Of a stretch of DNA of 64,000 nt, positions 41,424 through 64,000 are shown piece by piece. The stretch's first letter is position 1; each line of letters starts with the position of its first letter. Origin of the DNA: Alcaligenes sp. SORT26 (GTDB taxonomy: Bacteria > Pseudomonadota > Gammaproteobacteria > Burkholderiales > Burkholderiaceae_B); the NCBI RefSeq assembly GCF_017377875.1, contig NZ_CP070975.1, forward strand, positions 1,116,001 through 1,180,000. The letters are read 5' to 3'. A program made the position numbers and the translations under genes. Below the pieces are notes generated by a model. That model made no database searches, had not been told where the DNA came from, and saw only the letters and a list, made by a program, of their open reading frames with translations.

Positions 41424-42554
41424 TCACAGTGCTTGCAAGTCGATCCGAACCACTTGGTCCAGCACGGCTGGCTGCCCTTCCTCAGCAAATGGCTGCTTCA
41501 CACTGACATACAAGCGCTGCCCGTCAGGCGTCACCGCCACCGTATTAGGGTGAGCGGGCAAGGCAATACTGTGCTTGATGGCGTAACTGGTGGCGTCGAT
41601 CACGCTTAGCGTTCCGCTATCTCGGCTAGCGACATAAACCTCATTGCGAATCGGGTTGTAGCGAATCCCTACCGGTGTTTCTCCCGTCGGAATCGTGTGC
41701 AAAATGGAGCCCGTTTTCATATCAAACACCAGGGTGCCTTCGCCGTTATTAAGCTGATTGGCGAACAGTCGTTCACTCTTGCTATCCAGCGCGGTGTTCA
41801 CCAGAAAACGTCGGCGGGCATCGGTGTCCCCCCGTTTCTCGGGGATGCGGTTTTCACTGACCAGCTCCCAGCTACGGGTATCAAACACGGCATAGGCTGC
41901 GGTGCCACTGACCAGCAATTGATGATTCGCGGCATCCAGAGTCAGACCTGCAGTCGGTGCTTCGATATCGTGCAAAATGCGTTCCGTAGCGAACTTCTTG
42001 CTGTCGATTACCCAAATAAATCCACCATCCGTCACGCCACTAACGATGACCTGGCCAGCAGCTTCATCCACCACAATCTGACGGGTATGCACGGCCTTGC
42101 CTTTAGCATTGCTCACACCATGATGCAGCGTGCCCTTGACCGTCCCGGTAGAGGCATCGATCGCCGAAACGGCACCATCCAGCGTATGTCCGGCATAGAG
42201 CGTATTGCTACGCGTATCCAGCGCCAGTGCAAACGGCTTCAGTGCCAGATCAATTTTTTTCTGAACCGCCAGTGTTGTCGGGTCTAGCTGATAAATGGCA
42301 CCGCCACCCTTGCTGGAAAATTCAGCACTGCTAGCCACGAAAACGGCGTTGGATGTGGGGCTATAGACCAGCTCGTAAATTCCCTGCGCGATGTCCTGCT
42401 TCAAGACCGAGCCGGATACCGGCGCGGCAACAACAGACGTGGAACCCGGCTGCTTTTCAGATACTTGCGATGTGCAGCCCAGCAAAAACAAAGGTAGCAG
42501 CGCGACCGATACGCAGCGCAGGCCATGCGCTAAAAAAGTAGATTTCTTGGACAT
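41424..42554 (-). CDS. YncE-like beta-propeller lipoprotein (module A)
   Basis: The ATG at 42554 (376 aa) has AAGGA upstream and begins a lipoprotein signal with LFLLGC (Cys 27). The rest is a series of propeller blades of the YncE/surface-antigen type; repeats such as LYAGHTLDGAVSAIDAST, VYVASRDSGTLSVIDATS and LYVSVKQPF recur every 40-50 residues, consistent with seven blades. E. coli YncE is an iron-regulated propeller encoded beside the TonB receptor gene yncD. Here it directly follows the receptor (126 bp), and is near-identical in long stretches to the protein at 55918-57048. It could bind a ligand or receptor in the periplasm; the function is unproven. Confidence 0.85.
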   Translation of the reverse strand: MSKKSTFLAHGLRCVSVALLPLFLLGCTSQVSEKQPGSTSVVAAPVSGSVLKQDIAQGIYELVYSPTSNAVFVASSAEFSSKGGGAIYQLDPTTLAVQKKIDLALKPFALALDTRSNTLYAGHTLDGAVSAIDASTGTVKGTLHHGVSNAKGKAVHTRQIVVDEAAGQVIVSGVTDGGFIWVIDSKKFATERILHDIEAPTAGLTLDAANHQLLVSGTAAYAVFDTRSWELVSENRIPEKRGDTDARRRFLVNTALDSKSERLFANQLNNGEGTLVFDMKTGSILHTIPTGETPVGIRYNPIRNEVYVASRDSGTLSVIDATSYAIKHSIALPAHPNTVAVTPDGQRLYVSVKQPFAEEGQPAVLDQVVRIDLQAL

Positions 42555-42680
42555 ATAAATCCTTAAGAGGCAGCCCTGGCGTAAAACGCCAGGGAAACGA
42601 GGAAGACAAGGCTGATGTGCCGCTGATTCAAGGCGGCACAGAAGAAGGTTCACTAGTGATGAATGTGGAATCTGCGGCGA

Positions 42681-45104
42681 TTAATACTTCCAGCGCAGAT
42701 TCAGCATGACGTTGCGTGGCGCACCGTAAAAAGTGCTGAACCCCGCAGATCCGACCTGACGCAAATAGGTACGGTCGAACACGTTGTCGACCAGCAGATC
42801 CACGTTCCAGTGCGAATTGATCTGATAGCCAATTTTGGCGGCTACCGTGGCGTAGCCGCCCTGGGTGTAGATGCCGTTGTAGGTATCACTTTGCACATTC
42901 AGGCCAGTACCCACAGTCCAACCTTGCAAGGCACCATCCAGCACCTTGTTGTTGAAACGATACTGGGTCCACAGCTTGAACATATGCACAGGCACGGCCG
43001 CATTGACCGGAGCACCCAGATTGGCCTGGTTGGTGTCTTTAACAATCTTGGAGCGATTCCAGGTGTAGCTGGCGCTGATATCCCACTCGGGCGTGGGGTT
43101 GCCGGTGACCTCCAGTTCTACGCCCTTGCTTTCCACTTTGCCGGCACTCTGGTAGCAGGTGCCTGCCGCTGAACCACCACAACCGATATGCTCGTTGTCC
43201 ACCATGGAGCGGTTCTTGTCCTCCAGATAGAACAAGGCCAGGGTGGCTTTCAGGCGACCATCCATGAACTCGCTTTTAAGGCCCGTTTCGGCCTGCCAGC
43301 CTACGCGTGGTTTGAGGATATTGCCCGAATAATCAAAATTGCTTTGCGGGACGAACGTATCCGCATAACTGGCGTACCAGGTCATATCTGGATGAAAATC
43401 CCAGACCAGACCGCCATAAGGAGTGAACTCATTATTAACCTTCGCATTGCTGGTGTTCCAGCTCGTTTGCGCAGGCCAAGTCGTCCGGCTTTTGCTGGAA
43501 TAATCCGTCCAGCGACCGCCCAGAATCAGCCTGAAATCATCGGTGAGACTAAAACGGGCGGCGGTATACAAACCCGACTGCTGAGTGACGGTCTGGCTAC
43601 GGCTAGTGGGTGAGCCGAACTCGTAGCTGCTGTGATCATCCAGCACGTAATGGGGGGCCGCAGCGGTATAGGCCTGACCGGAACGGTAATCACGTTCGGT
43701 AATGTTGTAGCCAAGGGTCAACTCATGCGTTTGCCCAAACAGCTCGAACGGGCCAGTCGCACTGATGTCGCCACCCTGATAGATACGGGACTCGTCCAAA
43801 TAACCGGCGTCACCGCCCTTGGACAAACCCGTCTTCTCATCAATCCGCGTATTGAAAAAAGAATAAGCCTCGGTATCCACTTTGCCGTAGTTATAAGTCA
43901 ACTTGGTTTCCCAGCCATTCTCAAAACGGTGAGTCAAATCGGCTGAAAACTCCGGACTCTTTCGGGTCGACGGCTTGTCTGAACCTACATACGCATCACG
44001 GCCGGGCAGCTCGTCATTCATGTAGCGTGGCAAGCCCCAGTTCACGATATTTTTCTGATAACCATAGGTGCCCGTCAGACCCAGCGTGGTGTGAGGTGTC
44101 AGGTCATACTCAAGCGCACCGTAAATCAAGGTATAGCGATTGAACCAAGTCTCATAAAAGGTCTTCTTGTCATCATGAGACAAGACACCGCGCGCACGCA
44201 GTCGCCCGTCTTCCGTCAAAGGAGCACTAACATCCAGGTCCACTCCCCCATGCTGCCAAGACCCTGCACGCAGTGCGCCCGACATGCCGAACTCTTTAAG
44301 TGGCCGCTTACGGACGTAATTGACCGTGCCCCCAGGCTCCCCGGTTCCCGACAACAAGGCGGAAGGCCCGCGCAAGACTTCGATGCGATCGTATTGTGCG
44401 ATCGTGTTATTGCCCGTGCCTCCCGTGTAGCTACTTTGTATCGGTACGCCATCCGCCTGGATATTTGCGGAAAAACCGCGAATGCTGGGGGATTCCTGGC
44501 CTTCATAGCCTGACAGCGTCACCCCGGTCACTTGCCGTAGCGCATCAGCGGATGTGGTCCACCCCCTGTCTTCAATCTGCTGACGCGTCATCACCGATAC
44601 AGATTGGGGAATTTCTCTCAGGGATGTCACGCCCCTGAACAAGGTGACGGAATCAGCCGCATAAGAGCCTGTGCCTTCCGTGGTCGCTTCCAGATTACCC
44701 ACCACCCTGACCGGTGCTAATTCAGTGACCTCAGACACGCGCGACAGCATGACATTTTTGCCCTCCCGTCGGTACTGCACGACAGTCCCTTGCAACAGAC
44801 GCTGCAAGGCCTGCTCGGGTGCCATCGTGCCCTGTACCGCAGGAGCCTGGATACCTGCCACCACTTGCGGGGTGTAGAAAAACTGCAGATCAGTCTGTCG
44901 CCCCAACTGAATCAATGAATCGTCCAGCGACTGCGCTGGAAGCCTGATTTGTACAGCCACTTCCTGAGCATGCACATTCATGGGCAGACTCAAGGAAAAC
45001 GCTCCCATCACGGCCATCGCCGTCAAATTGAGGCACAAGGCAGAGCGGGAAGCCAGCCGTCTGCTGGTGGAGCGGAATGGACGGTTGCCCATGATTCGGT
45101 TCAT
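42681..45104 (-). CDS. TonB-dependent siderophore receptor with signalling domain (module A)
   Basis: This 807-residue outer-membrane receptor has a signal peptide ending near NVHAQE (46), an STN signalling domain (about 52-105, LPAQSLDDSLIQLGRQTDLQ and QALQRLLQGT), a plug (about 160-265, with SLREIPQSVSVMTRQQIEDR and RIEVLRGPSALLSGTGEPGG, each 20 residues) and a 22-strand barrel closing with NVMLNLRWKY. The STN domain means it signals through FecR to a FecI-type sigma, as in FpvA, FoxA or FhuE-like receptors. Ligand specificity cannot be read. Upstream are the sigma and FecR genes in the same direction. Confidence 0.93.
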   Translation of the reverse strand: MNRIMGNRPFRSTSRRLASRSALCLNLTAMAVMGAFSLSLPMNVHAQEVAVQIRLPAQSLDDSLIQLGRQTDLQFFYTPQVVAGIQAPAVQGTMAPEQALQRLLQGTVVQYRREGKNVMLSRVSEVTELAPVRVVGNLEATTEGTGSYAADSVTLFRGVTSLREIPQSVSVMTRQQIEDRGWTTSADALRQVTGVTLSGYEGQESPSIRGFSANIQADGVPIQSSYTGGTGNNTIAQYDRIEVLRGPSALLSGTGEPGGTVNYVRKRPLKEFGMSGALRAGSWQHGGVDLDVSAPLTEDGRLRARGVLSHDDKKTFYETWFNRYTLIYGALEYDLTPHTTLGLTGTYGYQKNIVNWGLPRYMNDELPGRDAYVGSDKPSTRKSPEFSADLTHRFENGWETKLTYNYGKVDTEAYSFFNTRIDEKTGLSKGGDAGYLDESRIYQGGDISATGPFELFGQTHELTLGYNITERDYRSGQAYTAAAPHYVLDDHSSYEFGSPTSRSQTVTQQSGLYTAARFSLTDDFRLILGGRWTDYSSKSRTTWPAQTSWNTSNAKVNNEFTPYGGLVWDFHPDMTWYASYADTFVPQSNFDYSGNILKPRVGWQAETGLKSEFMDGRLKATLALFYLEDKNRSMVDNEHIGCGGSAAGTCYQSAGKVESKGVELEVTGNPTPEWDISASYTWNRSKIVKDTNQANLGAPVNAAVPVHMFKLWTQYRFNNKVLDGALQGWTVGTGLNVQSDTYNGIYTQGGYATVAAKIGYQINSHWNVDLLVDNVFDRTYLRQVGSAGFSTFYGAPRNVMLNLRWKY

Positions 45105-45404
45105 CCTTCAAGAAAAAGACTGCTGGGGCCTGTTCGGCCCGGTTGCCAAAGGTAGATTGCCTGGATACGGCAAGTGCCCGTCCACGACGCGGCACCTTCA
45201 TGAGTAAAGCGCTTTGCTACCGTCTGCTCCTGAATGGAAACCCAAATCTAAATTGAAACTATTTGCAACTACAGAAAATTACATTTCATCCAACACGCGC
45301 ACACACCGATGCGCGTAGCAAGGTACGCCACACTGATCAGCAAAAAAAGAAAGGGAATGAGGCCCGCGTCCTATGGCTTCAGATAGGGACAGACGCAGAA
45401 AGAA
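45105..45404 (-). promoter_or_regulatory. Non-coding region before receptor A, with shared motif
   Basis: This 300-bp gap between the FecR stop and the receptor start has no gene. It should hold the sigma-dependent receptor promoter. TAAATTGAAA at 45249-45258 (minus-strand TTTCAATTTA) recurs at 59657-59666 in front of the second receptor. No terminator after FecR is evident. Confidence 0.5.
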
Positions 45405-46403
45405 CTAGCGGGCCAGAATGTCTACCGCCGTACCGTCCGGACGCGGCTGCACATTCACCGGCACGATATGTGGCAAGGCAGCCAGAAAAGAAGCCGGGTC
45501 GTCGATATTGAATACGCCGGAGACCTGCAAGCCAGCAATCTGAGGATCGGGCACCACCAGACGTTGAGTGCTGTAACGATTCAGCTCCTCAATAGCCGTG
45601 GCCAGTGACGTACCCCGGAAAACCACCTTGCCCTCACGCCAGGCCACGGAGTTTTCAACATCCTTGCCTTTGCCCGCGCTCAGATGATCGGGTTTGGAGA
45701 CACGCGCCACATCGCCTGGCCGCAGCTTTGCGACTTGCCGACGCCACCAGGGGCCCGCGCTCACTTCAACGGAGCCCTGCAAGACATCGACTGAAAATGC
45801 CTGGTCGATACGGCGCACATTAAATTGCGTGCCCGTCACTCGGACAGCGCCACTCTCCATCTCGACCACAAAGGGCGTGCCTTGCGTGCCATCCACCTGG
45901 AAAAACACTTCTCCCTGCTCCAGACGAACCGTGCGCTGATGTCCATAAAGCGCAACTGTCACGCTTGTATCGGTATTGAGTAGCAGTGTGGAATCGTCTG
46001 GCAGAACAATCTCGCGCCGCTCTCCATGAGCGGTGGCAAATTGCGCCTGATACTCGGGGACAGCACGCCAATGCATGGGGTCAAGAACGGCAACCGTCAA
46101 TGCCGCCACACAGGCAAGTCCCAGGCCATAGCTCCAGAATGCGCGCCGTGATGGTCTGCGATCCACTGCAGGCCCTGACGCCCTGCCAAGCTTTTGCACT
46201 TCACTTTTAGGCAGCGCGGCCGCCATGCTCCAAATATGCTGGACCTGCTGGTAGTGCTGTTCATTGCCTGGATCAGCCTGACACCACTGTTCAAAGGCCG
46301 CATGCTCTGGCTGCGTGACATCGTCCGAATGCATGCGCTCGTACCAGTACGCCGCCTGGTCACGCGGGTCGGTCAAGCTAGCCGGATCTATCCTGTCAGT
46401 CAT
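45405..46403 (-). CDS. fecR: FecR family anti-sigma/sigma regulator (module A)
   Basis: This 332-residue protein has an N-terminal cytoplasmic DUF4880 domain (about 10-58, DQAAYWYERMHSDD to YQQVQHIW), one membrane helix (about 89-107) and the periplasmic FecR domain (GERREIVLPDDSTLLLNTDTS, VTGTQFNVRR) followed by a C-terminal part (LQVSGVFNIDDPASFLAALP) that would contact the receptor STN domain. R86-R87-A-F just before the helix resembles a twin-arginine signal, reported for FecR of E. coli. It controls the sigma factor encoded upstream. Confidence 0.93.
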   Translation of the reverse strand: MTDRIDPASLTDPRDQAAYWYERMHSDDVTQPEHAAFEQWCQADPGNEQHYQQVQHIWSMAAALPKSEVQKLGRASGPAVDRRPSRRAFWSYGLGLACVAALTVAVLDPMHWRAVPEYQAQFATAHGERREIVLPDDSTLLLNTDTSVTVALYGHQRTVRLEQGEVFFQVDGTQGTPFVVEMESGAVRVTGTQFNVRRIDQAFSVDVLQGSVEVSAGPWWRRQVAKLRPGDVARVSKPDHLSAGKGKDVENSVAWREGKVVFRGTSLATAIEELNRYSTQRLVVPDPQIAGLQVSGVFNIDDPASFLAALPHIVPVNVQPRPDGTAVDILAR

Positions 46404-47023: not shown

Positions 47024-47048
47024 CAATAATAACAATAATTCTCATTTC
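47024..47048 (-). promoter_or_regulatory. Fur-box-like site before sigma gene A
   Basis: On the minus strand the sequence AATGAGAATTATTGTTATT lies about 35 bp upstream of the sigma start. It fits the Fur consensus of three NAT(A/T)AT-like hexamers and is almost the same as the site at 61305-61332. It overlaps the 3' end of the DUF192 gene. Confidence 0.72.
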
Positions 47049-47465: not shown

Positions 47466-48326
47466 CTAGCCTCCGCCTGCCAACCAGGGGCCTAACAGAC
47501 TCATGGCAATCACCAGAAACGTGCAGGGAAAAATGCACACGACCAAAGGCGCCAACAAATACACAGGCAACTTGAGTGCTCTTTGCTCCGCCTCCAAATG
47601 CAGATGAGCACGCAGTTTTTCCGCTTGAGATCGCAAAAGCAAGGCCAAGGACAAACCGGTGTCCTGAGCCAGCTCCAAAGACAAAGCCAACTCCTCCAGT
47701 TCCGCCTGCCTGAAGGTCAAAGCGACATTACGCATGGCTTGTGGCAAGCGTCGTCCTGCCCGAACCTCTCCCTGCACCTTGCTCAGGCTGAGCAGCAAAC
47801 TTCCTTGTGGCACAGCCTCCATCGCACGAGCCCAGGCCTGTTGCAGCCCCAAGCCGGACTCGACGGCCAGCACTAATAAATCCAGAAAAAACGGTAAATC
47901 CCGACGACAACGGGCGTGATGCTGACGCTGCAGTTTTCTACCTCGCGAGATGGCCTGCAAGAGACTCAACAAAAAACCGGTTGTGATCAGGCCAGCGATA
48001 TCGACCAGTGCTGCTCCCTGACTGAGCAGAAAGACCCCTGCCAGGCTTGTGAACAAGGCGGTCAAGGCCACACGTTTACTAAGAAAAACCCGTATCTCGT
48101 TCGCATACGAGCCCCATAAGCGTTCCGGCCAGTCATGCACAAAAGGAAAAGACAGGCAGACATTCAAGACTCTGGAAAATGGCGCTTCCCACGCCTGCCA
48201 GGCAGCCTGTTTCAGGCTGCTGCCACCTTGCAGCAACAGCAGATACCTTCCCCGCCAAGCCCATAAACAGGCGATCAGAAACAGGGCGGCGCTCAAGGCA
48301 GAAAGTGACCAAATTAAGGCCTGCAT
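47466..48326 (-). CDS. tadC: Tad pilus assembly inner-membrane protein TadC
   Basis: This 286-residue GspF-domain protein has helices at the N-terminus (MQALIWSLSALSAALFLIAC, 20 residues), two in the middle and one at the C-terminus. The central DLPFFLDLLVLAVESGLGLQ and AMRNVALTFRQAELEELAL segments match TadC. The ATG at 48326 has GGAGAGG upstream; the longer frame overlaps tadB. It forms the inner-membrane platform with TadB. Confidence 0.92.
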   Translation of the reverse strand: MQALIWSLSALSAALFLIACLWAWRGRYLLLLQGGSSLKQAAWQAWEAPFSRVLNVCLSFPFVHDWPERLWGSYANEIRVFLSKRVALTALFTSLAGVFLLSQGAALVDIAGLITTGFLLSLLQAISRGRKLQRQHHARCRRDLPFFLDLLVLAVESGLGLQQAWARAMEAVPQGSLLLSLSKVQGEVRAGRRLPQAMRNVALTFRQAELEELALSLELAQDTGLSLALLLRSQAEKLRAHLHLEAEQRALKLPVYLLAPLVVCIFPCTFLVIAMSLLGPWLAGGG

Positions 48327-48328
48327 AG

Positions 48329-49174
48329 TCACGCCTCTCCTCGCAAAATTACCTGCATCCACCACAGCCCCATCATCAGCATGGCGACAATGCCTCCTGC
48401 CACCCACACGCCTACTGTGTTGAGCCAGGCTTGTTCAAATGCAGTGGCATCCAGCAGATACAACGCTCCCGCCACAAAAACCGGCAAACAGAACATGATT
48501 CTGGCCTGCAAGCGAGCTTGAGCCGTCAAGGCAACAATCTTTTCCTCGATGGTCAGACGGGCGCGTATCGTTTGTGCCAGTATTTTCAAACGCTCACCCA
48601 GCCCCGCCCCCGTGCTCTGCCCCATCTGCATGGCACTGACGAACATGGCCAACTCCGACACCGGCACACGCTCCAACAAGTCCTGGTAGGAGTCTTTGGC
48701 ATTCAAACCCAAGCGCTGCTGGCGCAACAACAAACGCAACTCTTGCCCTAAAGGCGCAGGCAACGATTGGGCTAGCTGCTGCAAGGCCGCTTGCAAAGCC
48801 AGCCCCGCCTGCAGACTCAAGGCCAGGGACAAGACAAAATCTGGCAATTGTCGTCGCAAGGCTTCCAGGCGTCGCCGCCCCATCCAGCGCAAAATTACCA
48901 AAGGCGTCACGGCAGCAATCAATGCGATAAGTACAGCTAGCCACAAAGAATGAATCAGCCACCACGCCACCAGAAAGACCAGAGGCAGCACGGCCCAGGC
49001 ACCAAAGGCAAGATACTGACTGCGCACAAACACAAAATGCGATTGCAGGCTCTGCTCGGACTGCTGAAGCAATTGCTGCCTGTAGCGTGTGGCAAGACGC
49101 TGCCCCAAGCGCAATAAAAGATACGCTAGCGCCGTGGTACCAAAGACGGTCAGCAAAATACTAAGAAACTTCAT
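48329..49174 (-). CDS. tadB: Tad pilus assembly inner-membrane protein TadB
   Basis: This 281-residue GspF-domain protein has an N-terminal helix, a central cytoplasmic domain (LRRQLPDFVLSLALSLQAGL, 20 residues, and LAMFVSAMQMGQSTGAGLGE, 20 residues) and two C-terminal helices. It overlaps the ATPase gene by four bases. It would form the Tad platform with TadC. Confidence 0.92.
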   Translation of the reverse strand: MKFLSILLTVFGTTALAYLLLRLGQRLATRYRQQLLQQSEQSLQSHFVFVRSQYLAFGAWAVLPLVFLVAWWLIHSLWLAVLIALIAAVTPLVILRWMGRRRLEALRRQLPDFVLSLALSLQAGLALQAALQQLAQSLPAPLGQELRLLLRQQRLGLNAKDSYQDLLERVPVSELAMFVSAMQMGQSTGAGLGERLKILAQTIRARLTIEEKIVALTAQARLQARIMFCLPVFVAGALYLLDATAFEQAWLNTVGVWVAGGIVAMLMMGLWWMQVILRGEA

Positions 49175-50817
49175 GACTGCCCCTCTGATGGAGAGACATA
49201 CTCAGACCTCAAACCGCTGGCCGTAAAACCAAACTCCGGGCGGTAACTGTACAGAGTCTGCAATTGAATACGCTGTGCTTCTATACCCGTTACTTCCACA
49301 ACCTCGTGAACCAAACGCTTGCCATCGGGCAAACGACTCAGTTGCACAATAATGTGCAAAGCCCGTGCGATATGCTCCCGCACGACCAGCAAAGGCAAAT
49401 CCAGACCCGCCATCAAGACCATGCCCTCCAGGCGCGACAAGGCATCACGTGGGGTGTTCGCATGCAAGGTCCCCATCGATCCTTCGTGGCCTGTATTCAT
49501 GGCGGACAACATATCGAAGGCCTCCGCCCCCCGACATTCTCCGACCACAATCCGGTCGGGCCGCATGCGTAGGGCTTGTCGCAACAGGCTCCGTATATCC
49601 ACCTGTCCCTGACCCTCTGCATTGGCAGGCCGAGACTCCAAGGCCACCCAATTGCTGTGCTGCAACTGCAATTCGGCTGCATCCTCCAGGGTCACAATGC
49701 GCTCTCCCGAATCAATGCAGGTACTGAGCACATTCAGCAAGGTGGTTTTACCTGTGCCCGTCCCGCCCGAGACCAGGATATTGCAGCGCCCCTGTACTGC
49801 CTGTTGCAGAAAGCGAGCCATCTCGGGAGACAAGCTACCCGTCTGCAGCAAGTCCTCCAAGCCCAAGCGTCGTTTGGGGAATTTGCGTATGGTCACGCAG
49901 GTTCCCTTGACCGCGATAGGTGACAAGACCGCATGAAAACGTGAACCATCCGCCAAACGCCCATCTACAGCAGGCGAGCTGATATCCAGCCTTCTGCCCA
50001 AGGGCGCCAAGATACGATCAATAATGGCCCGCAAAGCGGTTTCACTACTGAAGGCCAAGGGATGGGCCTGCAATCGCCCCGCCTGCTCCACAAAAACCCG
50101 GTCGTAGTGATTAACCATGATTTCCGACACTGAAGCGTCCGCCAATAATGGCTCCAAAGGGCCAAGACCCACGGCCTCCGCACAGACACTAGCCTGCAAT
50201 CTGGCACGTTCATGCTCAGGTACAGCACACTGCGCCTGAATCAAACGCCCCAGGCAATCAAAAGCCTCCTGTTCCAATTGTTTGTCCGTCACCCTGGACA
50301 AGTCCCGGCGCTGCAGCTCCAAGGCACTGAGCAAGGCATGGTGCAGGCGCTGTTGTTCTTGCCTGAACAAGTCACTATTGGAAGACGGCATAGGCTCCTG
50401 ATCAGGAAGCGGTGCGTGACCATCACGCGCTACCGTCCGCACAGGTTCTTCCAAGATCAAAGCTCCATTGCCCCCAACACCTGCCATCGGCTTCTGAGCA
50501 TCGGCTTCCGTCTGAAATGAGGAGGTCTGCCCAAAACCAGCAATACGCAACTTGAAACCGCCCAAAGCCAGCACATCCCCCTGACGCAAGGGGCCATCGT
50601 CATAGACCCGTTTGCCATTAAGTTGCACGCCGGTCAGCGAGCCATGATCCTGTATATACACGGCCCCGGCGCGCTCCAGCAGGCTCGCGTGCTGACGCGC
50701 AATTCGCCAGGACGGCAAGACGACATCGCAAGCCGGATCGCGTCCTATCAGGGCGGGCAAATGGACTGACCAAGGACGCGTCGTCCCCAACTCTGATTCA
50801 AGCTCAAGGTTCAACAC
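49171..50817 (-). CDS. cpaF: Tad pilus ATPase CpaF/TadA with N-terminal FHA domain
   Basis: This 548-residue protein is a fusion. Residues about 20-95 form an FHA phosphothreonine-binding domain (IGRDPACDVVLP, RIARQHASL, LTGVQLNGKRVY). After a linker of about 55 residues comes the secretion ATPase: N-terminal helices, Walker A GGTGTGKTT (351-359), Asp box and Walker B-like VGECRGAEAFDML, and the His box MGTLHANTP. Usual CpaF lacks FHA, although the pairing is known in some tad loci. The FHA may link pilus assembly to protein phosphorylation. It starts at GTG 50817, overlapping the secretin gene by 14 bp. Confidence 0.93.
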   Translation of the reverse strand: MLNLELESELGTTRPWSVHLPALIGRDPACDVVLPSWRIARQHASLLERAGAVYIQDHGSLTGVQLNGKRVYDDGPLRQGDVLALGGFKLRIAGFGQTSSFQTEADAQKPMAGVGGNGALILEEPVRTVARDGHAPLPDQEPMPSSNSDLFRQEQQRLHHALLSALELQRRDLSRVTDKQLEQEAFDCLGRLIQAQCAVPEHERARLQASVCAEAVGLGPLEPLLADASVSEIMVNHYDRVFVEQAGRLQAHPLAFSSETALRAIIDRILAPLGRRLDISSPAVDGRLADGSRFHAVLSPIAVKGTCVTIRKFPKRRLGLEDLLQTGSLSPEMARFLQQAVQGRCNILVSGGTGTGKTTLLNVLSTCIDSGERIVTLEDAAELQLQHSNWVALESRPANAEGQGQVDIRSLLRQALRMRPDRIVVGECRGAEAFDMLSAMNTGHEGSMGTLHANTPRDALSRLEGMVLMAGLDLPLLVVREHIARALHIIVQLSRLPDGKRLVHEVVEVTGIEAQRIQLQTLYSYRPEFGFTASGLRSEYVSPSEGQS

Positions 50818-55842: not shown

Positions 55843-55872
55843 CAAAAACCGAGCCGGATGGGCTTGTCCGGC
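55843..55872 (-). terminator. Rho-independent terminator after YncE-like gene B
   Basis: On the minus strand, GCCGGA, an eight-base loop and TCCGGC (55853-55872) are followed by TCGGTTTTT. It separates module B from the tad operon, so the pilus genes need a promoter in the remaining ~60 bp before flp. Confidence 0.75.
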
Positions 55873-55917
55873 TACGGTCTATGCGACTACTTCATACAAC
55901 ACTTGGCACTGTCAGCG

Positions 55918-57048
55918 TCACAAGGCCTGCAGATCAATACGAGCCACCTGATCAACAGGCTCCGGCTCCCCTTTTTTTGCAAATGGCTGCTTCACACTGA
56001 CATAAAGCTGCTGACCGTCAGGCGTCACGGAAATCGTGTTGGGATGCACAGGCAGCGTAATAGTATGTTTGATGGCATAGCTGCTAGCGTCGATAACACT
56101 CAGCGTTCCACTGCCTCGGCTGGCTACATACACTTCATTGCGAATCGGGTTATAGCGTATCCCCACCGGCATATATCCCGTGGGGATTTTGTGCAAGATG
56201 GCACCCGTTTTCAGGTCAAACACCAAGGTGCCTTCACTGTTATTAAGCTGATTGGCAAACAAGCGTTCACTCTTGCTGTCCAGGACGGTATTGACCAGAA
56301 AACGTCGTCTGATATCGCTAGGCGACAGCTTCTCCGGGATGCGGTTTTCGCCGATCAGTTCCCAACTATTCGTGTCGAACACTGCATAGGCCGCCGTGCC
56401 ACTAGCCAGCAATTTATGATTCGCCGCATCCAGAGTCAAACCTGCCGTGGGCGCTTCAAGGTCGCGCAGAATACGGTTTGTCGAGAAGGTCTTGCCGTCA
56501 ATAACCCAGATAAAACCAAGATCTGTCACACCACTGACGATGACCTGATTAGCAGCTTCATCCACCACGATCTGGCGTGTATGCACCGGCTCGCCCTTGG
56601 CATCTTTGACGCCATGATGCAAGGTTCCCTTGAGCGTACCCGTTGAAGCATCAATAGCTGAAACAGCGCCATCCCGGGTATGACCGGCATAGAGCGTGTT
56701 GGTACGCGCATCCAAGGCCAGCGCAAATGGCTTGAATGGCAGATCAATCTTTTTCTGTACGGCCAGGCTGACTGGATCCAGCTGATAAATCGAGCCGCCT
56801 CCCTTGCTGGTCAACTCCTCCGTACTCGCCACAAACACGGCCTTGGAGGCCGGGCTGTACACCAGCTCGTAAATTCCCGGCGCAACTTCCCGTTGCAGGA
56901 CGGCCTCTGACACCGGAGTAGATACGGCAGCAGTCGCCGCTACTGGCGTGGGTGCCGCATGAGACACACCAGTCAGCAAAAACAAGGGCAGCGCGGCAAC
57001 AAGAATGGAACGCTTGCTGCGCGTTAAATAAGTAAATTTCTTGGACAT
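55918..57048 (-). CDS. YncE-like beta-propeller protein (module B)
   Basis: The ATG at 57048 (376 aa) has AAGG upstream. It is a close paralogue of the protein at 41424-42554; long stretches such as KPFALALD, HGV..AKG and TAGLTLDAANH are shared, and the length is identical. The signal differs: LFLLTGVSHAAP replaces LFLLGC, so the lipoprotein cysteine is missing and this copy should be a soluble periplasmic protein. Seven blades are again likely. It lies 59 bp downstream of receptor B. Confidence 0.85.
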   Translation of the reverse strand: MSKKFTYLTRSKRSILVAALPLFLLTGVSHAAPTPVAATAAVSTPVSEAVLQREVAPGIYELVYSPASKAVFVASTEELTSKGGGSIYQLDPVSLAVQKKIDLPFKPFALALDARTNTLYAGHTRDGAVSAIDASTGTLKGTLHHGVKDAKGEPVHTRQIVVDEAANQVIVSGVTDLGFIWVIDGKTFSTNRILRDLEAPTAGLTLDAANHKLLASGTAAYAVFDTNSWELIGENRIPEKLSPSDIRRRFLVNTVLDSKSERLFANQLNNSEGTLVFDLKTGAILHKIPTGYMPVGIRYNPIRNEVYVASRGSGTLSVIDASSYAIKHTITLPVHPNTISVTPDGQQLYVSVKQPFAKKGEPEPVDQVARIDLQAL

Positions 57049-57107: not shown

Positions 57108-59585
57108 TCAGAACCGATGACTGACTGTCAGCAAGACCTGGCGAGGTTTGCCCAGGTAATTGCCGGTGCTGATGCTGGAGCCGATCTTTGAGTAGTACTG
57201 CTTGTTGCTCAGGTTATCGATATTCAACTGCACGGATGTATTGCGGTTGAAGTCGTATCTGGCCAAGAGATCAACAATGGCGTAGCCAGGCTGCTCGATG
57301 CGGAAATTTGATCCCTTGTAGAACACCTTGCTTTGCCAGCGCACGCCGCCACCCAGGGTCAGGCCATCCAGGGCACCGCCCAGTCGGTATGTACTGAAGA
57401 TCTTCACCATGCTTTCCGGGCTGCTTCGTTCGTTGTACATCTCACCCTTTCTGGTACCCGACGCATATTCAGAGCGTGCGTAGGTATAGCCTGCACTGAC
57501 GTTCCAGCGATCGGTCACGGCACCGGCCACCTCAAGTTCCACGCCACGCGTGCGCACTTTCTCTGCCGCCTCGTAGCAATACAGCACAGCAGGATTGCAG
57601 TACGTCACACCAGCTACCTGCGTGGGCAGATTCAACTGCTCCAACTGAAACAGCGCGATCGATGCATTCAGGCGTTTGTCCAGAAACTCGCCCTTCAAAC
57701 CCAGCTCCTGATTCGTACCTTTCACCGGGTCCAGCAAGGAGCCGTTGATGTCGTAATAACTTTGCGGCTTGAAAATGCCGGTATGGCTTGCATAGACCGA
57801 GTAGGTGTCATTCAAGTCGTACACCAGGCCAACATAGGGCACAAACTCGGCATCCGCCGAATAGTCCGTTTTATAGTATTGCGACTTGGACTTGAACCAG
57901 CTCACACGACCACCCAGTATGAGTTTCAATGGGTCCGCGATATCAAAGCGTGCAGAGGCATAGAGTCCCAGTTCTTCCTTGTTCTCATCTACATAGTAGG
58001 GATTCAGACCAAAGGTCGGCTTGGCCTGCGATGTGGGATTCCAGTTCTCCGGATCAAGCGGAATGTTGGCGGCGGAACTGCCATCCACCCGCTCATTTTC
58101 CTTGTTGGCATTGATCCCGATAGAAAAATCATGATCACGCCCGAACAGCGTCAGGGGACCATTTGCATTGACGTTGAACGCGTAATGCTTGTCACGCATA
58201 TCCACGCTTTGAGTAAATTTGCGCAGTGCGCCGCCGGTATACCAGGGGTAGCTCGCAACGTAATCGGACTCGGCCCACGCCGCGCGAGTCAGGGCTTTCA
58301 TGACCCAACCGTTGTCAAACCGATGCCCCAGGTCTGCATACAGCGTTGTCTGACGGCGATCCAGATACTCCCAGTCGCTGCCCAGAAAATCATGAGGCGA
58401 CAAGTCGTAAAACGAGCCATCTGCACGGGTCGGAAATCCTCCCCAGCTATAGCCGTCGTTATGTTGCCGCTGCCGTGACAAACCCAGGCTCAGGGTGGTG
58501 GCGGGCGTAAGGTCCACGTCCACCACGCCATAGAACAGTTGTTCCTTCTGGCGGTTGTAGTCCCGGTAAAGTTTGCCACCTCCGGCCACAATGACCGCAC
58601 GGCCACGCACAGTGCCGGACTCATTGAGCGCATTGGACAGGTCCACCACGCCACGCGCATTCTCCCATGATGAGGCCGTCACGCGGGCCGAATACTGAGG
58701 TGTCGAAGTCGGTCTTTTGCGGATCAGATTCACGGATGCTGACGGGTTGCCAGACCCTTCCAGCAAGCCCGTGGCCCCCCGCACAATCTCCACCCGGTCA
58801 TACATGGCCAAATCATCATCGGCCAGAATATCGCGCGAATAGCTTTGAGTGGACGTCGTGATGCCGTCGTACTGAATATTGGAAATGCTGTGACCACGCG
58901 CCAGATACTCCCAGCGCGAATCGCCATTGCCTTGCACGGCCACAATCCCCGGAGCATCACGCAAGGACTCATCCAGAGCCCGGTAATTCTTGTCCTCGAT
59001 TTTTTGATGCGTAATGACGGTCATCGACTGCGGTGTTTCACGCAGCGAGAGCTCCAGTCCGCTGGCCGATGTCGACGGCCCCATCGCGACATAGGAGCCG
59101 CTCCCTTCTGTGGCCAGGCCCGTATTGGCCGTGACCGTGATCGGAGCCAATTGCGTGGTGTCATCATGACTGGGGCGGGTCAAGGAAACTGTTCTCCCCC
59201 TCCAACTGGCCTGCACTCCTGTTCCCTTCAGCAAACTTTGCATGGCTTGCTGCGGCGTCATGCGCCCACTAACGGGCGCTGCCTGCAAGCCACTGACGGT
59301 ATCGGGCAAATAATAGATTTGGATATCTGCCTGCTGTCCCAACTCCAGCAAAGCCTGATTCAGGGATTGAGCCGGAATGGAGATCGACAGCACAGGCACA
59401 TCCTGCGCGACCACCTGCTCCAAAGGGCTGAACGACAAGGCCAGTGCCAATACGCTGAGCCCTACGCCCTGCACCGGACGTAAGGCAAAAAAAGGCCATC
59501 GTTTATTTGTGTTCTGTGGATACACCGTAGTACTCGTTATAAGGAAAGCGACGCACAAAGCGACAAGCCCTTTGGCCAAAGGCAA
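57108..59585 (-). CDS. TonB-dependent siderophore receptor with signalling domain (module B)
   Basis: This 825-residue receptor has a signal region with an extended N-terminus (cleavage near VVAQDVP, about 61), an STN domain (about 65-118, IPAQSLNQALLELGQQADIQ, 20 residues), a plug (LSLRETPQSMTVITHQKIED, 20 residues; RVEIVRGATGLLEGSGNPSA, 20 residues) and a barrel ending in VLLTVSHRF. It has the same architecture as receptor A but lower overall similarity than the propeller pair, so it probably takes a different ligand. FecR and sigma genes lie upstream. Confidence 0.93.
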   Translation of the reverse strand: MPLAKGLVALCVAFLITSTTVYPQNTNKRWPFFALRPVQGVGLSVLALALSFSPLEQVVAQDVPVLSISIPAQSLNQALLELGQQADIQIYYLPDTVSGLQAAPVSGRMTPQQAMQSLLKGTGVQASWRGRTVSLTRPSHDDTTQLAPITVTANTGLATEGSGSYVAMGPSTSASGLELSLRETPQSMTVITHQKIEDKNYRALDESLRDAPGIVAVQGNGDSRWEYLARGHSISNIQYDGITTSTQSYSRDILADDDLAMYDRVEIVRGATGLLEGSGNPSASVNLIRKRPTSTPQYSARVTASSWENARGVVDLSNALNESGTVRGRAVIVAGGGKLYRDYNRQKEQLFYGVVDVDLTPATTLSLGLSRQRQHNDGYSWGGFPTRADGSFYDLSPHDFLGSDWEYLDRRQTTLYADLGHRFDNGWVMKALTRAAWAESDYVASYPWYTGGALRKFTQSVDMRDKHYAFNVNANGPLTLFGRDHDFSIGINANKENERVDGSSAANIPLDPENWNPTSQAKPTFGLNPYYVDENKEELGLYASARFDIADPLKLILGGRVSWFKSKSQYYKTDYSADAEFVPYVGLVYDLNDTYSVYASHTGIFKPQSYYDINGSLLDPVKGTNQELGLKGEFLDKRLNASIALFQLEQLNLPTQVAGVTYCNPAVLYCYEAAEKVRTRGVELEVAGAVTDRWNVSAGYTYARSEYASGTRKGEMYNERSSPESMVKIFSTYRLGGALDGLTLGGGVRWQSKVFYKGSNFRIEQPGYAIVDLLARYDFNRNTSVQLNIDNLSNKQYYSKIGSSISTGNYLGKPRQVLLTVSHRF

Positions 59586-59645
59586 TCAGAGACGCAAAAC
59601 CGTCCCTTCCCCCATAAGAGTCAATCAGGAGCAAACCCCGTAACG

Positions 59646-59676: not shown

Positions 59677-59695
59677 CTTTCAGGGAGTATGAGGT

Positions 59696-60685
59696 CTAAC
59701 GAGCCGCAATACCCCATCGGCCATCTGGCCCTTGCACAATCACCACGGGTGCCAATGAGGGCAGGACTTCCAGAAAAGCCTGGGGGTCATTCACATTGAA
59801 GACACCTGTCACTCGCAACCCGCGCAAGGATGGGCTATGCAGCACAATGCCTGGCTCCTTGTAGCGATTGAGCTCGGCCACGATATATTCCAGTGGCTCG
59901 GCATCGAAAATGGCTCGACCCTGACGCCAGGCCAAAGCCTGCACCATATTTCGTGACTGCACGGACGCTTGTTGACCGCTGCCCAGGCGCACACCCTGCT
60001 CCCCTGCCAGCTTGTAATGGACGCTGTTCCACCAGGGTCCACTCTCTACGCGCACCGAACCGGATTCAACCGCCACATCAACCGTGTCCATCTCCCGCCG
60101 CACGTTAAAACGAGTGCCCGTCACCCGTATCACAGCCTGACCCGCATCGACATTAAAAGGCCGATCTGGCTCGGAGCGTACCTGGAAGAAAGCCTCCCCT
60201 TTTTCCAGCACGACACGGCGCTCGGACTGATAGAAGGAAACGTGCACCGCGCTGTCGGTATTCAGACTGATCAGCGATCCATCCGGCAAGGTCTGCTCAA
60301 GACGTTCGCCCTTGCGGCTGACATAACGCTGGGCATACTGCTCACTTTCCAGCCAACGCTGCGGCCCCAGAACAGCGACTCCCGCTGCCGCCGCACAGGC
60401 ACTTCCCAAACCTGCGATAAACGCTCTGCGCCCCCATTGCGGTGTCCGAGGGCGAGTGTTCTGTGCCAAGCGTGCCTTGAAAGCGGCATCCGGTGTTACC
60501 TGCGCAATCGACCACATGGCTTCCATGTCTTGATAAGCCTGCGCATGACGCGGATCCTGCTCGCGCCATGTGTTAAGCAGCGTCTGATCCCCCTCCTGCA
60601 TCAAACCACCTCGCACGCGCGCAAACCAGAACGCGGCGGCGTCATGGGGATCATCAGGAATGGGAAGTGAATGGGATAAGCTCAT
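59696..60685 (-). CDS. fecR: FecR family anti-sigma/sigma regulator (module B)
   Basis: This 329-residue protein repeats the module A FecR design: DUF4880 domain (about 12-58, DPHDAAAFWFARVRGG), R86-R87-A-F followed by a helix (about 89-107), a FecR domain (LEQTLPDGSLISLNTDSAVH, 20 residues; VTGTRFNVRR) and a C-terminal part (LRVTGVFNVNDPQAFLEVLP, 20 residues). It should carry the signal from receptor B to the sigma factor encoded upstream. Confidence 0.93.
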   Translation of the reverse strand: MSLSHSLPIPDDPHDAAAFWFARVRGGLMQEGDQTLLNTWREQDPRHAQAYQDMEAMWSIAQVTPDAAFKARLAQNTRPRTPQWGRRAFIAGLGSACAAAAGVAVLGPQRWLESEQYAQRYVSRKGERLEQTLPDGSLISLNTDSAVHVSFYQSERRVVLEKGEAFFQVRSEPDRPFNVDAGQAVIRVTGTRFNVRREMDTVDVAVESGSVRVESGPWWNSVHYKLAGEQGVRLGSGQQASVQSRNMVQALAWRQGRAIFDAEPLEYIVAELNRYKEPGIVLHSPSLRGLRVTGVFNVNDPQAFLEVLPSLAPVVIVQGPDGRWGIAAR

Positions 60686-60766
60686 AGTCGCTACGATAGC
60701 TCGCCGGTTAATCCCTGTACCAATGCGGGTGAAGACAGAAAAGTGCTCATGGCGTGCATCGCTATA

Positions 60767-61270: not shown

Positions 61271-61304
61271 AAAACAGCATGGGGTAAGTAGATCAGAGGG
61301 ACAT

Positions 61305-61332
61305 GATAATAACAACAATTCTCATTATTGTT
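61305..61332 (-). promoter_or_regulatory. Fur-box-like site before sigma gene B
   Basis: On the minus strand ATAATGAGAATTGTTGTTAT lies about 40 bp upstream of the sigma start. It differs in few positions from the site before sigma gene A, which supports Fur control of both modules. Confidence 0.75.
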
Positions 61333-61395
61333 CTTATGTTTTGATATGGACAGGAAAAAGCCTCGGAGTCATTGCCTCCTTTATCAGGCAAACGA

Positions 61396-61425
61396 ACAAA
61401 AAAAACCCGCCAACAGGCGGGCTTT
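61396..61425 (-). terminator. Rho-independent terminator after YncE-like gene C
   Basis: On the minus strand, CCCGCC, a four-base loop and GGCGGG (61406-61421) are followed by TTTTTTTT. It ends the module C transcript before sigma gene B. Confidence 0.9.
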
Positions 61426-61437
61426 CTTGAAACAAGC

Positions 61438-62592
61438 TCAACGAGGCTCTAACTTGGCCACACTTTCCCTTGCTGTTCTGCTTTCTTCTTTGATGGACAC
61501 GTAGACATTTCCCGAGCCCGCATCCAAGGTCAAGCTATTAGGATGCGGTGCCAAAGGCAGCGTGGCCAAAAGTGCGTAGTCGTTTGCATCCAGCACGCTG
61601 ACGGTGCCGCTATCCCGGTTGGAGACATAGATACGGTCACGACCCTCATCCAGCAAGGGCGCAATGGGAGCTTTACCGGTAGGAACGCTAGCCACTAAAG
61701 CACCATTCGTCGCATCAATCGCGACCATACGATGCCCGGTTCCACGCTTTTCGTAATCCGTCAGCCCTGCCTTTTCCTTACGCAAGACATCCATGCGTTC
61801 CGAGCCCAGATCACTCGCCAATAGACGGCGTCGCTTGTGGTCATACGCCAGGTTCAGCAGTTGATCGGCCTTGACCTCCCACTTGGTTTTAATGGTGAGC
61901 GTCTGCGTATCAATCCCAAACACCTGTCCCTGCAAATTGGACACGTACACCCTGCCCCCTTCCTTATCCAGCGCGATCCCGGCAGCACCCGCTCCCAAAC
62001 CTGGAACCACACGGTCCAGCTTCAGGCTGGCCGTGTCGACCACATACAGCACACTAGCTTGAGCACTCAGGCCGGGGACATACAAGCGTTGCTGCTTCTG
62101 GTCTACAACCAGCTCACGCAGCAAATGCGGGTAGATGGCTTTATCGCCGTCGTAACGAATCGGCTCGGCCAATTGCACCACACCCAGCACCCTATTTTGA
62201 GCCGTATCCACGACTGTCACAGACGCCGTCAGTGCATTGCCCACATAAAGGCGATTGGCGGCATCATCCAGAGCCACGCCAAACCCACCGCGCTCCAGCG
62301 GAATTTCTGCAGCAAGCGACAAATCCACCGGGTTCAGGCGCAAGACTTTGGAGGGCTCATTAGCCGGATCCGCGCCCCCCGCCGAAGCCACAAAAACCGC
62401 CTGCTGGCGCTCCGAAAATGCAAGTTCATACAGACGCGGGGCCACCGTTTTGCGCGCAATCTGAATGGTTTCCTGTGCTTTTTGTTCCTGAGCCAAGGGC
62501 TTGAGCGCCGCACGCCCATCCGCCCCCACCTGCGCGCAAGCGGCCGTCACGCTGACGCAGGCCAGCAATCCATAACGCTGCCATTTATTCAT
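61438..62592 (-). CDS. YncE-like beta-propeller lipoprotein (module C)
   Basis: This 384-residue protein has a lipoprotein-type signal (MNKWQRYGLLACVSVTAACA, 20 residues; lipobox TAAC) and propeller repeats such as LYVGNALTASVTVVDTAQ, IYVSNRDSGTVSVLDANDYA (20 residues) and VYVSIKEES. It is a more distant paralogue of the two other propellers but keeps the same opening RLYELAFSERQQAVFVAS. It follows the third TonB-dependent receptor after 36 bp, so the pairing occurs three times here. Confidence 0.83.
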   Translation of the reverse strand: MNKWQRYGLLACVSVTAACAQVGADGRAALKPLAQEQKAQETIQIARKTVAPRLYELAFSERQQAVFVASAGGADPANEPSKVLRLNPVDLSLAAEIPLERGGFGVALDDAANRLYVGNALTASVTVVDTAQNRVLGVVQLAEPIRYDGDKAIYPHLLRELVVDQKQQRLYVPGLSAQASVLYVVDTASLKLDRVVPGLGAGAAGIALDKEGGRVYVSNLQGQVFGIDTQTLTIKTKWEVKADQLLNLAYDHKRRRLLASDLGSERMDVLRKEKAGLTDYEKRGTGHRMVAIDATNGALVASVPTGKAPIAPLLDEGRDRIYVSNRDSGTVSVLDANDYALLATLPLAPHPNSLTLDAGSGNVYVSIKEESRTARESVAKLEPR

Positions 62593-62628
62593 AGTCCACC
62601 TCTTGTTTTTGAATGAAATTTGTCTGAC

Positions 62629-64000
62629 TTAAAAGTCCATGCTGGCGGACAACATGAAAGTTCGCGGTGCGCCCAGCCACAGCTTGCCGCTGCCACCTGC
62701 TGACCAATACGCCTTATTGGTGATATTGAGTACATCAGCACGCAAAGTCACCGCATGACCGCTAATCGAGGTTTGATAGCGCAAGCCAGCATCAAACAAG
62801 GTTCTTCCTGGAGCTCGCATCGTGTTATCGCTGCTGTAGTACTGCCCTTGAATGGCCTGCATATTCCCGCTTGCCGTCAGGCCAGGGACACCCGGCACAT
62901 CCCACTCCACACCCAGCTTGCCTTGCCACTTGGGTCTGGCCATGACGAAACGTCCCTCATTCACACCACCAGCGGTCTTGCTCAACTCGGCATCCAGATA
63001 GGCAATACCGCCCATTACTCGCAAGCCCTCTACAGGCTCTCCGAAGAAGTTCAGCTCCAGGCCTCGATTACGCTGCTCGCCATCAAAGGAGAACAGATTG
63101 GTCGCGGGGTCGATATAGCTGTTGGGCAAACGAATCTGATAGGCGCTCAAGGTGGCGGCAAAATCGCCCAGATCCAGCTTCACACCCAGCTCATGTTGCT
63201 TGGTTTTATGGGGTGCAAAGATCTCCCCGGCATTATTGGTGCCCACCGGAGCAATCGCCCCCTCACGCAGGCCCTGGATGTAGTTGCCATAGACAGAAAC
63301 TTCATCGCTCAGTTTGACGACCAGCGCGGCGGCTGGCGAGGTTGCCGATTCGTCATAGCGCGCCGTGCTGGCACCGCTGACGGCATGGAAGGATTCACTC
63401 AAGACATTCTGTCGTCTGATGCCCAAAGTCAGCATGACGCTATCGTCCGCAAACGAAAGTGTGTCAGCGATGCCCACGCTGCTTAAACGCGAAAAGGCAA
63501 TTTTGGGAACCTCTGATTTACCAATCACCGTGGCAGGGGCAGGTCCCCAGGAAGGCGAATAAATATTGGTATACCAGTCCGCAGGCAATAAATTAACGAC
63601 TGTTTTAGAGCGAACCTCTTGCTCGTAGTAGGAGGCGCTCAGCGCCAGTTCGTGACGAACGCTGCCCGTATTCAAGCGCGCCATGATGCCGACATCGCCC
63701 GCCTTACGGTCCAGAATCTGACGTTGCTGCCCGAAATTGTTTCGGTAACGACCATCTGCATCTGTCACCGCAAATACGACGCCTAAAAGGCCGTCGTAAT
63801 CGGTGCTGCCCTGACCGTAATTGCCATATACCGTCACATCTTTACTCAGATCCGCCTCGCCCCGCAGCACAAACGCGGTGTCTTCAGCACGCGAGTATGT
63901 CCAGTCTGGTGCCAAAGCTTGTCCCGCCTTGGGAACATCGGGTGTATCCAATCCCCTGCCTACGGTGATCCCGCGTGTGACGCCTTTTACATTGTCTTTA
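62629..64000 (-). CDS. TonB-dependent receptor, barrel part (module C; 5' end beyond window)
   Basis: The frame stays open from its stop near 62629 to the window edge, with 457 codons visible; the TTG at 63951 is not the real start. The sequence is the C-terminal barrel of a TonB-dependent siderophore receptor: LSDEVSVYGNYIQGLREGAI (20 residues), TKQHELGVKLDLGDFAATLS (20 residues), NRGLELNFFGEP and the terminal ...RTFMLSASMDF ending in the usual aromatic residue. It resembles the catecholate receptor group (Fiu/FcuA-like) in the visible part. The signal peptide, plug and any signalling domain are outside the window. Confidence 0.9.
   Translation of the reverse strand, partial: KDNVKGVTRGITVGRGLDTPDVPKAGQALAPDWTYSRAEDTAFVLRGEADLSKDVTVYGNYGQGSTDYDGLLGVVFAVTDADGRYRNNFGQQRQILDRKAGDVGIMARLNTGSVRHELALSASYYEQEVRSKTVVNLLPADWYTNIYSPSWGPAPATVIGKSEVPKIAFSRLSSVGIADTLSFADDSVMLTLGIRRQNVLSESFHAVSGASTARYDESATSPAAALVVKLSDEVSVYGNYIQGLREGAIAPVGTNNAGEIFAPHKTKQHELGVKLDLGDFAATLSAYQIRLPNSYIDPATNLFSFDGEQRNRGLELNFFGEPVEGLRVMGGIAYLDAELSKTAGGVNEGRFVMARPKWQGKLGVEWDVPGVPGLTASGNMQAIQGQYYSSDNTMRAPGRTLFDAGLRYQTSISGHAVTLRADVLNITNKAYWSAGGSGKLWLGAPRTFMLSASMDF

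What the first reader, a model, noticed from the sequence alone, without database searches (positions are those of the whole stretch)
41424..64000. Three repeats of a TonB-dependent receptor paired with a YncE-like beta-propeller
Receptor and propeller genes occur as adjacent co-directional pairs three times (42681/41424, 57108/55918, 62629/61438), with the propeller always just downstream. E. coli has a comparable pair, yncD-yncE, whose role is unresolved. Triplication with a conserved order suggests the propeller is a functional partner of the receptor, for example a periplasmic ligand catcher, a plug or TonB helper, or a release factor.
Basis: partly seen in the sequence, partly recalled or inferred. 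Interest (0 to 1): 0.75.

Follow-up and report, generated by a model that had tools for sequence, protein, structure and literature searches.

The report
Propeller partners of siderophore receptors
A bacterium carries repeated gene sets in which a receptor that imports iron-carrying molecules is paired with a small propeller-shaped protein, and relatives of that propeller also sit in gene clusters that seem to build such molecules, which suggests that the propeller handles the iron carrier itself inside the cell envelope.

Summary

Best explanation: a periplasmic siderophore-handling protein, working like FpvF or XusB but from another family. Binding is not shown. Receptor and propeller trees agree only in part; propellers 1 and 2 are 76% identical, their receptors 34%. 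Against: 12 of 91 have no named iron neighbour and 20 of 23 Stenotrophomonas loci show no receptor. One paper already says in passing that YncE serves iron acquisition. Plasmid SenB/TieB looks like a distant relative.

The parts
36729..38177 (-). outer-membrane factor, NodT/OEP type; last gene of cassette 1
   Evidence: TIGR01845 304 bits over cut-off 210; Pfam OEP
38113..40152 (-). MacB-like ABC exporter
   Evidence: Pfam MacB_PCD, ABC_tran and FtsX; NF007826 613 bits, under its cut-off of 966
40146..41324 (-). MacA-like periplasmic adaptor, 99 nt after propeller 1
   Evidence: RND_mfp 140.6 bits over cut-off 94.9; MacA model 259.5, under its cut-off of 342; no terminator-like site listed between it and propeller 1
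41424..42554 (-). propeller 1: seven-bladed YncE-like protein with lipobox LLGC
42681..45104 (-). receptor 1: TonB-dependent siderophore receptor with STN domain, FauA/FhuE-like
   Evidence: TIGR01783 326 bits over cut-off 223.5; STN, Plug and barrel
45405..46403 (-). FecR-type regulator of cassette 1
   Evidence: Pfam FecR 77.6 bits
46484..46990 (-). FecI-type sigma factor of cassette 1 (likely ATG start; longest ORF reaches 47035)
   Evidence: Pfam Sigma70_r4_2; start read from sequence
47025..47043 (-). Fur-box-like site before fecI of cassette 1, 14 of 19
55852..55873 (-). terminator-like site after propeller 2
   Evidence: 13 such sites in the region, shuffles mean 8.4
55918..57048 (-). 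propeller 2, 76% identical to propeller 1, export signal without lipobox
57108..59585 (-). receptor 2: siderophore receptor with STN domain, FauA/FhuE-like, 34% identical to receptor 1
59696..60685 (-). FecR-type regulator of cassette 2
   Evidence: Pfam FecR 85.7 bits
60767..61318 (-). FecI-type sigma factor of cassette 2 (longest ORF; likely ATG start 61270)
   Evidence: start read from sequence
61305..61323 (-). Fur-box-like site before fecI of cassette 2, 14 of 19
61399..61428 (-). strong terminator-like hairpin right after propeller 3
   Evidence: 13 pairs plus T run
61438..62592 (-). propeller 3: YncE-like, probable lipobox TAAC
62629..64000 (-). receptor 3 (runs past the window to about 65295; fecR and fecI follow to about 66821)
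   Evidence: Pfam barrel; full protein TIGR01783 339.8 bits; gene order in L020

Best explanation
Each cassette is an iron-regulated siderophore uptake unit. FecI/FecR under Fur switches on a TonB-dependent siderophore receptor and a secreted YncE-type seven-bladed propeller (shown: gene content, order, predicted fold; inferred from motifs: Fur control). The propeller is exported to the periplasm, sometimes lipid-anchored to the outer membrane. There it most likely binds the ferric or iron-free siderophore at the channel mouth on one face, carries it between receptor, inner-membrane reductase (a PepSY protein in some cassettes) and exporter (MacAB-OMF in cassette 1; an EntS-like MFS exporter in many of the biosynthesis clusters), and so limits back-diffusion and supports iron release and siderophore recycling. 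Binding and hand-over are inferred. My split: tie to siderophore systems 0.85, periplasmic site 0.8, direct siderophore binding 0.5, hand-over to reductase or pump 0.35.
Against: No ligand data. 18 of 91 propellers lie in neither main context, 12 of them without an iron gene that I could name beside them. Of 23 named Stenotrophomonas loci, 20 show no receptor within five called ORFs. In the phylum sample 8 of 27 places show neither receptor nor esterase in 1.5 kb. E. coli YncE adjoins a PQQ transporter, and one paper draws YncE with a TonB receptor in lanthanide-enzyme loci (figure legend of PMC10875860), so the ligand may be wider than siderophores. Propellers 1 and 2 are 76% identical while their receptors are 34% identical, against tight docking. 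The E61 to Q change is not specific to the biosynthesis group (11 of 41 receptor-adjacent ones have Q). The channel-mouth placement rests on strand order, not on inspected coordinates.
Confidence: 0.55

Rival explanations
1. Surface lid: the propeller sits outside on top of the receptor and captures the ligand, as XusB does in Bacteroides.
For: Same fold class beside a siderophore receptor (PMC13142918); about 35 to 41 of 92 rows look like lipoproteins.
Against: Most other rows look like ordinary export signals, including propeller 2, which is 76% identical to lipoprotein 1; a soluble protein cannot stay on the receptor as an anchored lid. The NRPS-cluster members scored by script have no receptor hit in the fetched stretch. 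No surface-export signal was tested.
Confidence: 0.12
2. Enzyme: the propeller chemically alters the siderophore (for example a lactonase or esterase helper) to release iron or mature the product.
For: Four loci of one unnamed genus have an esterase gene next to the propeller (L147, L154, L156, L157); some propellers are lactonases (recalled).
Against: A separate Fes-like esterase is already present in the own cluster. Of the enzyme families only SMP-30 scored above its cut-off, marginally and for propeller 1 alone (27.2 against 26.3 bits).
Confidence: 0.12
3. Signalling partner: the propeller tunes the FecIR surface-signalling chain through the receptor's STN domain.
For: 27 of 40 receptor-adjacent propellers have fecR in view; receptors 1 and 2 carry STN.
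Against: Propellers occur without fecIR in view in NRPS clusters and in several PepSY loci.
Confidence: 0.1
4. Carrier for other metallophores or cofactors (PQQ, lanthanide ligands, haem), in which siderophores are only one case.
For: E. coli yncE neighbours pqqU; YncE is drawn with a TonB receptor in XoxF3 loci (figure legend of PMC10875860); ChaN beside L128.
Against: YncD is reported as not Fur-regulated while YncE rises in a fur mutant; the contexts found here are mostly of siderophore type.
Confidence: 0.11

Closest known systems
E. coli YncE (3vgz, 3vh0)
   Different: Divergent from pqqU rather than downstream of a siderophore receptor; all three window proteins fall under the NF052280 equivalog cut-off of 400 bits.
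XusAB(C) of Bacteroides (XusB, DUF4374)
   Same: Seven-bladed propeller lipoprotein working with a TonB siderophore transporter (PMC13142918: abstract, Results part 1 of 3, Discussion and passages seen); the own cassette in L016 also has a PepSY protein, as XusC is recalled to be.
   Different: No DUF4374 match; 51 of 92 rows lack a lipobox by my script; linked here to FecIR and MacAB.
FpvF/FpvG and PvdRT-OpmQ of Pseudomonas aeruginosa
   Same: Comparable neighbours by function: siderophore receptor, inner-membrane reductase, MacB-type exporter, periplasmic siderophore-binding protein (PMC6954188 and PMC5985334, abstract and passages).
   Different: FpvF is a binding protein associated with an ABC transporter, not a propeller; no ABC importer lies next to the three window propellers.
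cjrABC-senB of E. coli virulence plasmids
   Same: SenB/TieB matches propeller 1 at 27% identity over 96% (search listing); the cluster has a receptor-like gene (CjrC), a PhuW-like gene and a Fur box (passages of PMC7412671).
   Different: Not fetched or modelled; [quoted passage not shown]

Membership tests
YncE equivalog (NF052280) | Score over the curated cut-off of 400 bits | tested here: not met
   285.9, 274.0 and 228.3 bits
YncE-like beta-propeller (PF21783) | Score over 27.1 bits | tested here: not met
   20.3 and 23.1 bits, propeller 3 no match
YncE-type fold | Seven-bladed propeller closest to 3vgz | tested here: met
YVTN beta-propeller repeat (TIGR02276) | Repeat score over 27.85 bits | tested here: met
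   54.4, 43.4 and 56.3 bits
TonB-dependent siderophore receptor (TIGR01783) | Score over 223.5 bits | tested here: met
   326.4 and 356.9; full receptor 3 339.8
FauA (alcaligin receptor) equivalog | Score over 900 bits | tested here: not met
   407 and 521 bits for receptors 1 and 2
XusB (DUF4374) | DUF4374 sequence match | tested here: not met
   not among Pfam matches at E 0.001 for the three propellers
XusB-like surface lid | Exposed on the cell surface, bound to the receptor | not testable with these tools
   no localisation or complex data
XusB/FpvF-like siderophore binder | Binds ferric siderophore | not testable with these tools
   needs binding assays
MacAB-type exporter | MacB periplasmic core, ABC and FtsX domains in one protein beside a MacA-like adaptor | tested here: met
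   below the MacA and MacB equivalog cut-offs
Fur-regulated unit | Fur-box-like site at the first gene | tested here: met
   14 of 19 at fecI of cassettes 1 and 2; no site of 13 or more close to fecI of cassette 3 or of the L017 plus-strand cassette in that scan

The most novel reading that the evidence does not exclude
The YncE-type propellers of Proteobacteria, including E. coli YncE and the plasmid protein SenB/TieB, form a widespread class of periplasmic metallophore-handling proteins, mostly for siderophores. One branch serves receptors and recycling pumps, another serves export or return of self-made siderophores, and the residues at the channel mouth set the ligand. SenB would then be an iron-uptake partner of CjrC rather than an enterotoxin factor.
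Probability: 0.4. Interest if true: 0.8.

Novelty: new variant of a known kind. Interest (0 to 1): 0.6.

Why it matters
YncE has had a crystal structure since 2011 and, as far as I found, no settled role. The gene neighbourhoods give it a concrete, cheap test: does it bind siderophores? If so, the periplasmic step of siderophore traffic in many Proteobacteria gains a protein class, and a plasmid gene labelled as enterotoxin-related would need re-labelling. The residue changes between receptor-linked and biosynthesis-linked propellers offer a direct structure-function experiment.

Tried and rejected
Rejected: chance pairing (control). General TonB helper or plug (6 of 31 receptors). Real fusions of propeller with NRPS or other genes: the long ORFs in L123, L124, L125 and L113 gave no second domain with the home-made profiles and look like over-extended starts. 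Phage origin: no PHROG match for propellers 1 and 3.

Led nowhere or weak: XusB did not appear among the structure rows shown or in the best 60 rows of the profile search of PDB sequences; that excludes nothing. Several PDB entries named 'putative surface layer protein' or 'YncE family protein' matched that profile at E 0.001 to 0.01; I recall such entries as BtuG but no call says so. Promoter scans were at background. PMC9042941 was seen as abstract and outline only; its protein is a helical bundle and not related. PMC4670117 (passages) concerns a YVTN propeller used as a secretion signal.

Literature: ten searches (capped listings of titles and abstract starts). After them I opened passages of some papers holding YncE with TonB, siderophore or Fur. 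[quoted passage not shown] PMC8125054 lists yncE in a table of regulated genes, PMC7688217 and PMC12502724 list a YncE family protein in tables, PMC10875860 draws one with a TonB receptor. I saw none that describes YncE-type propellers as siderophore binders or reports the receptor, NRPS and MacAB contexts; other listed papers were not opened. The YncD and PqqU papers did not contain the word YncE in the main text held.

Limits of the counts: gene calls are my own ORF picks with home-made profiles. The 91 were taken on the per-match score (122.5 bits or more); by whole-protein score two of the 20 controls (L216 128.9, L225 120.8) come to the level of the lowest members (124.8), so the family edge is not sharp. 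The controls are the next 20 distinct places below the cut; some had short flanks. 3 of 91 (L123, L124, L125) were placed by hand and checked. The 91 include several near-identical Alcaligenes sets. The Fur control regions come from unlabelled ORFs, not all real genes. The phylum search scored only 4 candidates per genome (17 of 398 genomes is a lower bound); of its 28 non-own loci (27 distinct, L142 and L155 being one place; 1.5 kb flanks), by eye 15 have a receptor next to the propeller (6 co-directional with the propeller upstream, 8 divergent, 1 convergent), 4 an esterase, 8 neither (not all neighbours of the 8 were scanned). In one search, 24 of 54 loci show a receptor within five ORFs; some of these are the same genomes as, and in one (L163) no propeller was called.

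Full report
What is there. On the minus strand the window holds three co-directional pairs of a TonB-dependent receptor and a YncE-like propeller. Each pair is the end of a larger set: a FecI-type sigma factor, a FecR-type regulator, the receptor, then the propeller (the set of pair 3 runs past the window edge and was read from L020). Receptors 1 and 2 carry the STN domain, and all three pass the siderophore-receptor model. Cassette 1 goes on, 99 nt after the propeller, into MacA-like, MacB-like and NodT-type genes. A strong terminator-like hairpin follows propeller 3 at once. In the window three sites reach 14 of 19 matches to a recalled Fur consensus, where about 0.5 is expected; two of the three lie just before fecI of cassettes 1 and 2, the third is at 3211.

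The whole genome. The 4.08 Mb genome has 8 propellers of this type plus two weak generic hits and 31 TonB-barrel matches. Six of the 8 belong to a receptor cassette: five directly after the receptor, and one (L016) after receptor, a 90-residue ORF, a PepSY_TM protein and a DUF3325 protein. The seventh (L018) lies between an MFS exporter and a chorismate-binding (EntC-like) gene, in a cluster with an NRPS (condensation, adenylation, carrier, thioesterase) and an enterochelin-esterase-like gene; I read this as a catecholate siderophore cluster. The eighth (L019) has no iron gene that I recognised nearby.

The family survey. A profile of the 8 was run on 121 genomes of the same family; 75 have some match at E 0.001. 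Taking the hits of 122.5 bits or more gives 91 genes in 25 genomes; hits below are mostly partial YVTN matches. The 83 outside the own genome were fetched with about 7 kb on each side where the contig allowed and gene order was called. By context: 41 have a same-strand receptor as the next gene (33 with the receptor upstream and 7 downstream by script, all within 398 nt, median gap 19.5 nt; plus L125, with receptor hits on both sides). 25 lie in NRPS clusters (23 by script, plus L123 and L124): all 25 have a large NRPS hit and 11 an EntC-like gene, while 15 of the 23 scored by script have an EntS-like MFS gene and 6 of 23 a Fes-like esterase, so 'catecholate' is read from 11 and inferred for the rest. 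7 are with a PepSY gene and 18 elsewhere. Of the 18, two have a same-strand receptor within three genes (L121, L131), L081 adjoins a FecCD-ABC-binding-protein set (L082 looks the same by gene order), L128 adjoins a ChaN gene, and one of a divergent pair in L087 adjoins a propeller-receptor pair. That leaves 12 with no named iron gene beside them (L062 and L071 have a receptor four or five genes off). As a control the next 20 places below the cut were fetched: none has a receptor within 1.5 kb; one, the 166-residue ORF in L221, has one 1.56 kb away.

Outside the family. In 398 genomes of the phylum, 17 had a strong match (lower bound). Of 27 distinct non-own places, 15 have a receptor next to the propeller, 4 an esterase and 8 neither. 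In E. coli K-12 pqqU (yncD) and yncE are adjacent but divergent. Among 54 loci from named genomes, 24 show a receptor within five ORFs, but 20 of the 23 Stenotrophomonas loci do not; these count against a strict receptor link. MacA neighbours recur in L080, L095, L097, L099, L162 and L164. On plasmids, SenB/TieB is listed at 27% identity over 96% of propeller 1.

Do receptor and propeller travel together? For 43 pairs the tree distances correlate (Spearman 0.32, Pearson 0.49); none of 1000 shuffles within genomes reached the Spearman value (mean 0.12, maximum 0.31). Without the other Alcaligenes genomes (28 pairs) it is 0.30, reached by 1 of 1000. So there is joint descent, but loose. In the window itself propellers 1 and 2 are 76% identical, while receptors 1 and 2 are 34%, FecR 39% and FecI 38% identical: the propeller was copied or converted on its own. 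Both receptors are FauA/FhuE-like, so a shared ligand class would explain this better than a tight fit to one receptor.

Where it works. Nearly all rows show a hydrophobic export signal (L069, L115 and L126 do not, perhaps from wrong or truncated starts); my script flags a lipobox in 41 of 92 rows (one a duplicate), of which about six look doubtful. Lipoprotein 1 and its 76% twin without a lipobox sit in the same gene position, so the anchor is optional. This favours the periplasm over a surface lid.

Mechanism. [quoted passage not shown] PvdT is a MacB homologue (PMC5985334, passages). The present propellers stand next to comparable parts: siderophore receptor, PepSY membrane protein (a reductase by inference), MacAB-type exporter. 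In Bacteroides the propeller XusB binds ferric enterobactin and passes it to the receptor XusA, and BfXusB binds ferrichrome in the propeller pocket (PMC13142918, abstract, Results part 1 of 3, Discussion and passages). Together with enrichment of Fur-like sites at fecI (17 of 28 against 11 of 92) and the overexpression of E. coli YncE in a fur mutant (PMC5120174, passages), the best account is a periplasmic siderophore carrier. Shown: gene content, order, recurrence, predicted fold, conservation. Inferred: Fur control, location, ligand, hand-over.

Verdict. It is a variant of a known kind (an accessory siderophore-handling protein of a TonB system) built from a family whose role is open. [quoted passage not shown] a description as siderophore handler with these gene contexts I did not find in ten searches of an open-access library.

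Noticed in passing
window 41424-42554 and 55918-57048: Two propellers 76% identical within cassettes whose other genes are only 34-39% identical: a recent copy or gene conversion limited to the propeller.
   Followed up: partly
window 47466-55530: Flp/Tad-type pilus genes (two T2SSF, a T2SSE ATPase with an FHA domain, secretin, RcpC) lie between cassettes 1 and 2.
   Followed up: no
L018:1370-2947: Fes-like esterase with what looks like an N-terminal export signal beside the NRPS cluster, suggesting ester cleavage outside the cytoplasm.
   Followed up: no
plasmid records (H20-H51): 32 of the 40 listed rows (spread over 691 records, several genera) are annotated senB/TieB; the label 'enterotoxin production-related' may mislead.
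   Followed up: partly
L019:6697-7866, also L058, L059, L060: A lipoprotein propeller without iron genes recognised nearby, in four Alcaligenes genomes, next to a cytidine-deaminase-like and a cupin gene (Pfam for L019 only).
   Followed up: no
L126:6989-8188: Propeller next to two ABC-3 metal permease genes, a possible link to another metal.
   Followed up: no
L064, L065, L078: PepSY gene followed by the propeller (with DUF3325 in L065), with no receptor in view: PepSY protein and propeller may form a unit of their own.
   Followed up: no
PMC10875860, figure legend: A YncE-type propeller and a TonB receptor are drawn in XoxF3 lanthanide-enzyme loci, hinting at a lanthanide version of the same pairing.
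   Followed up: no
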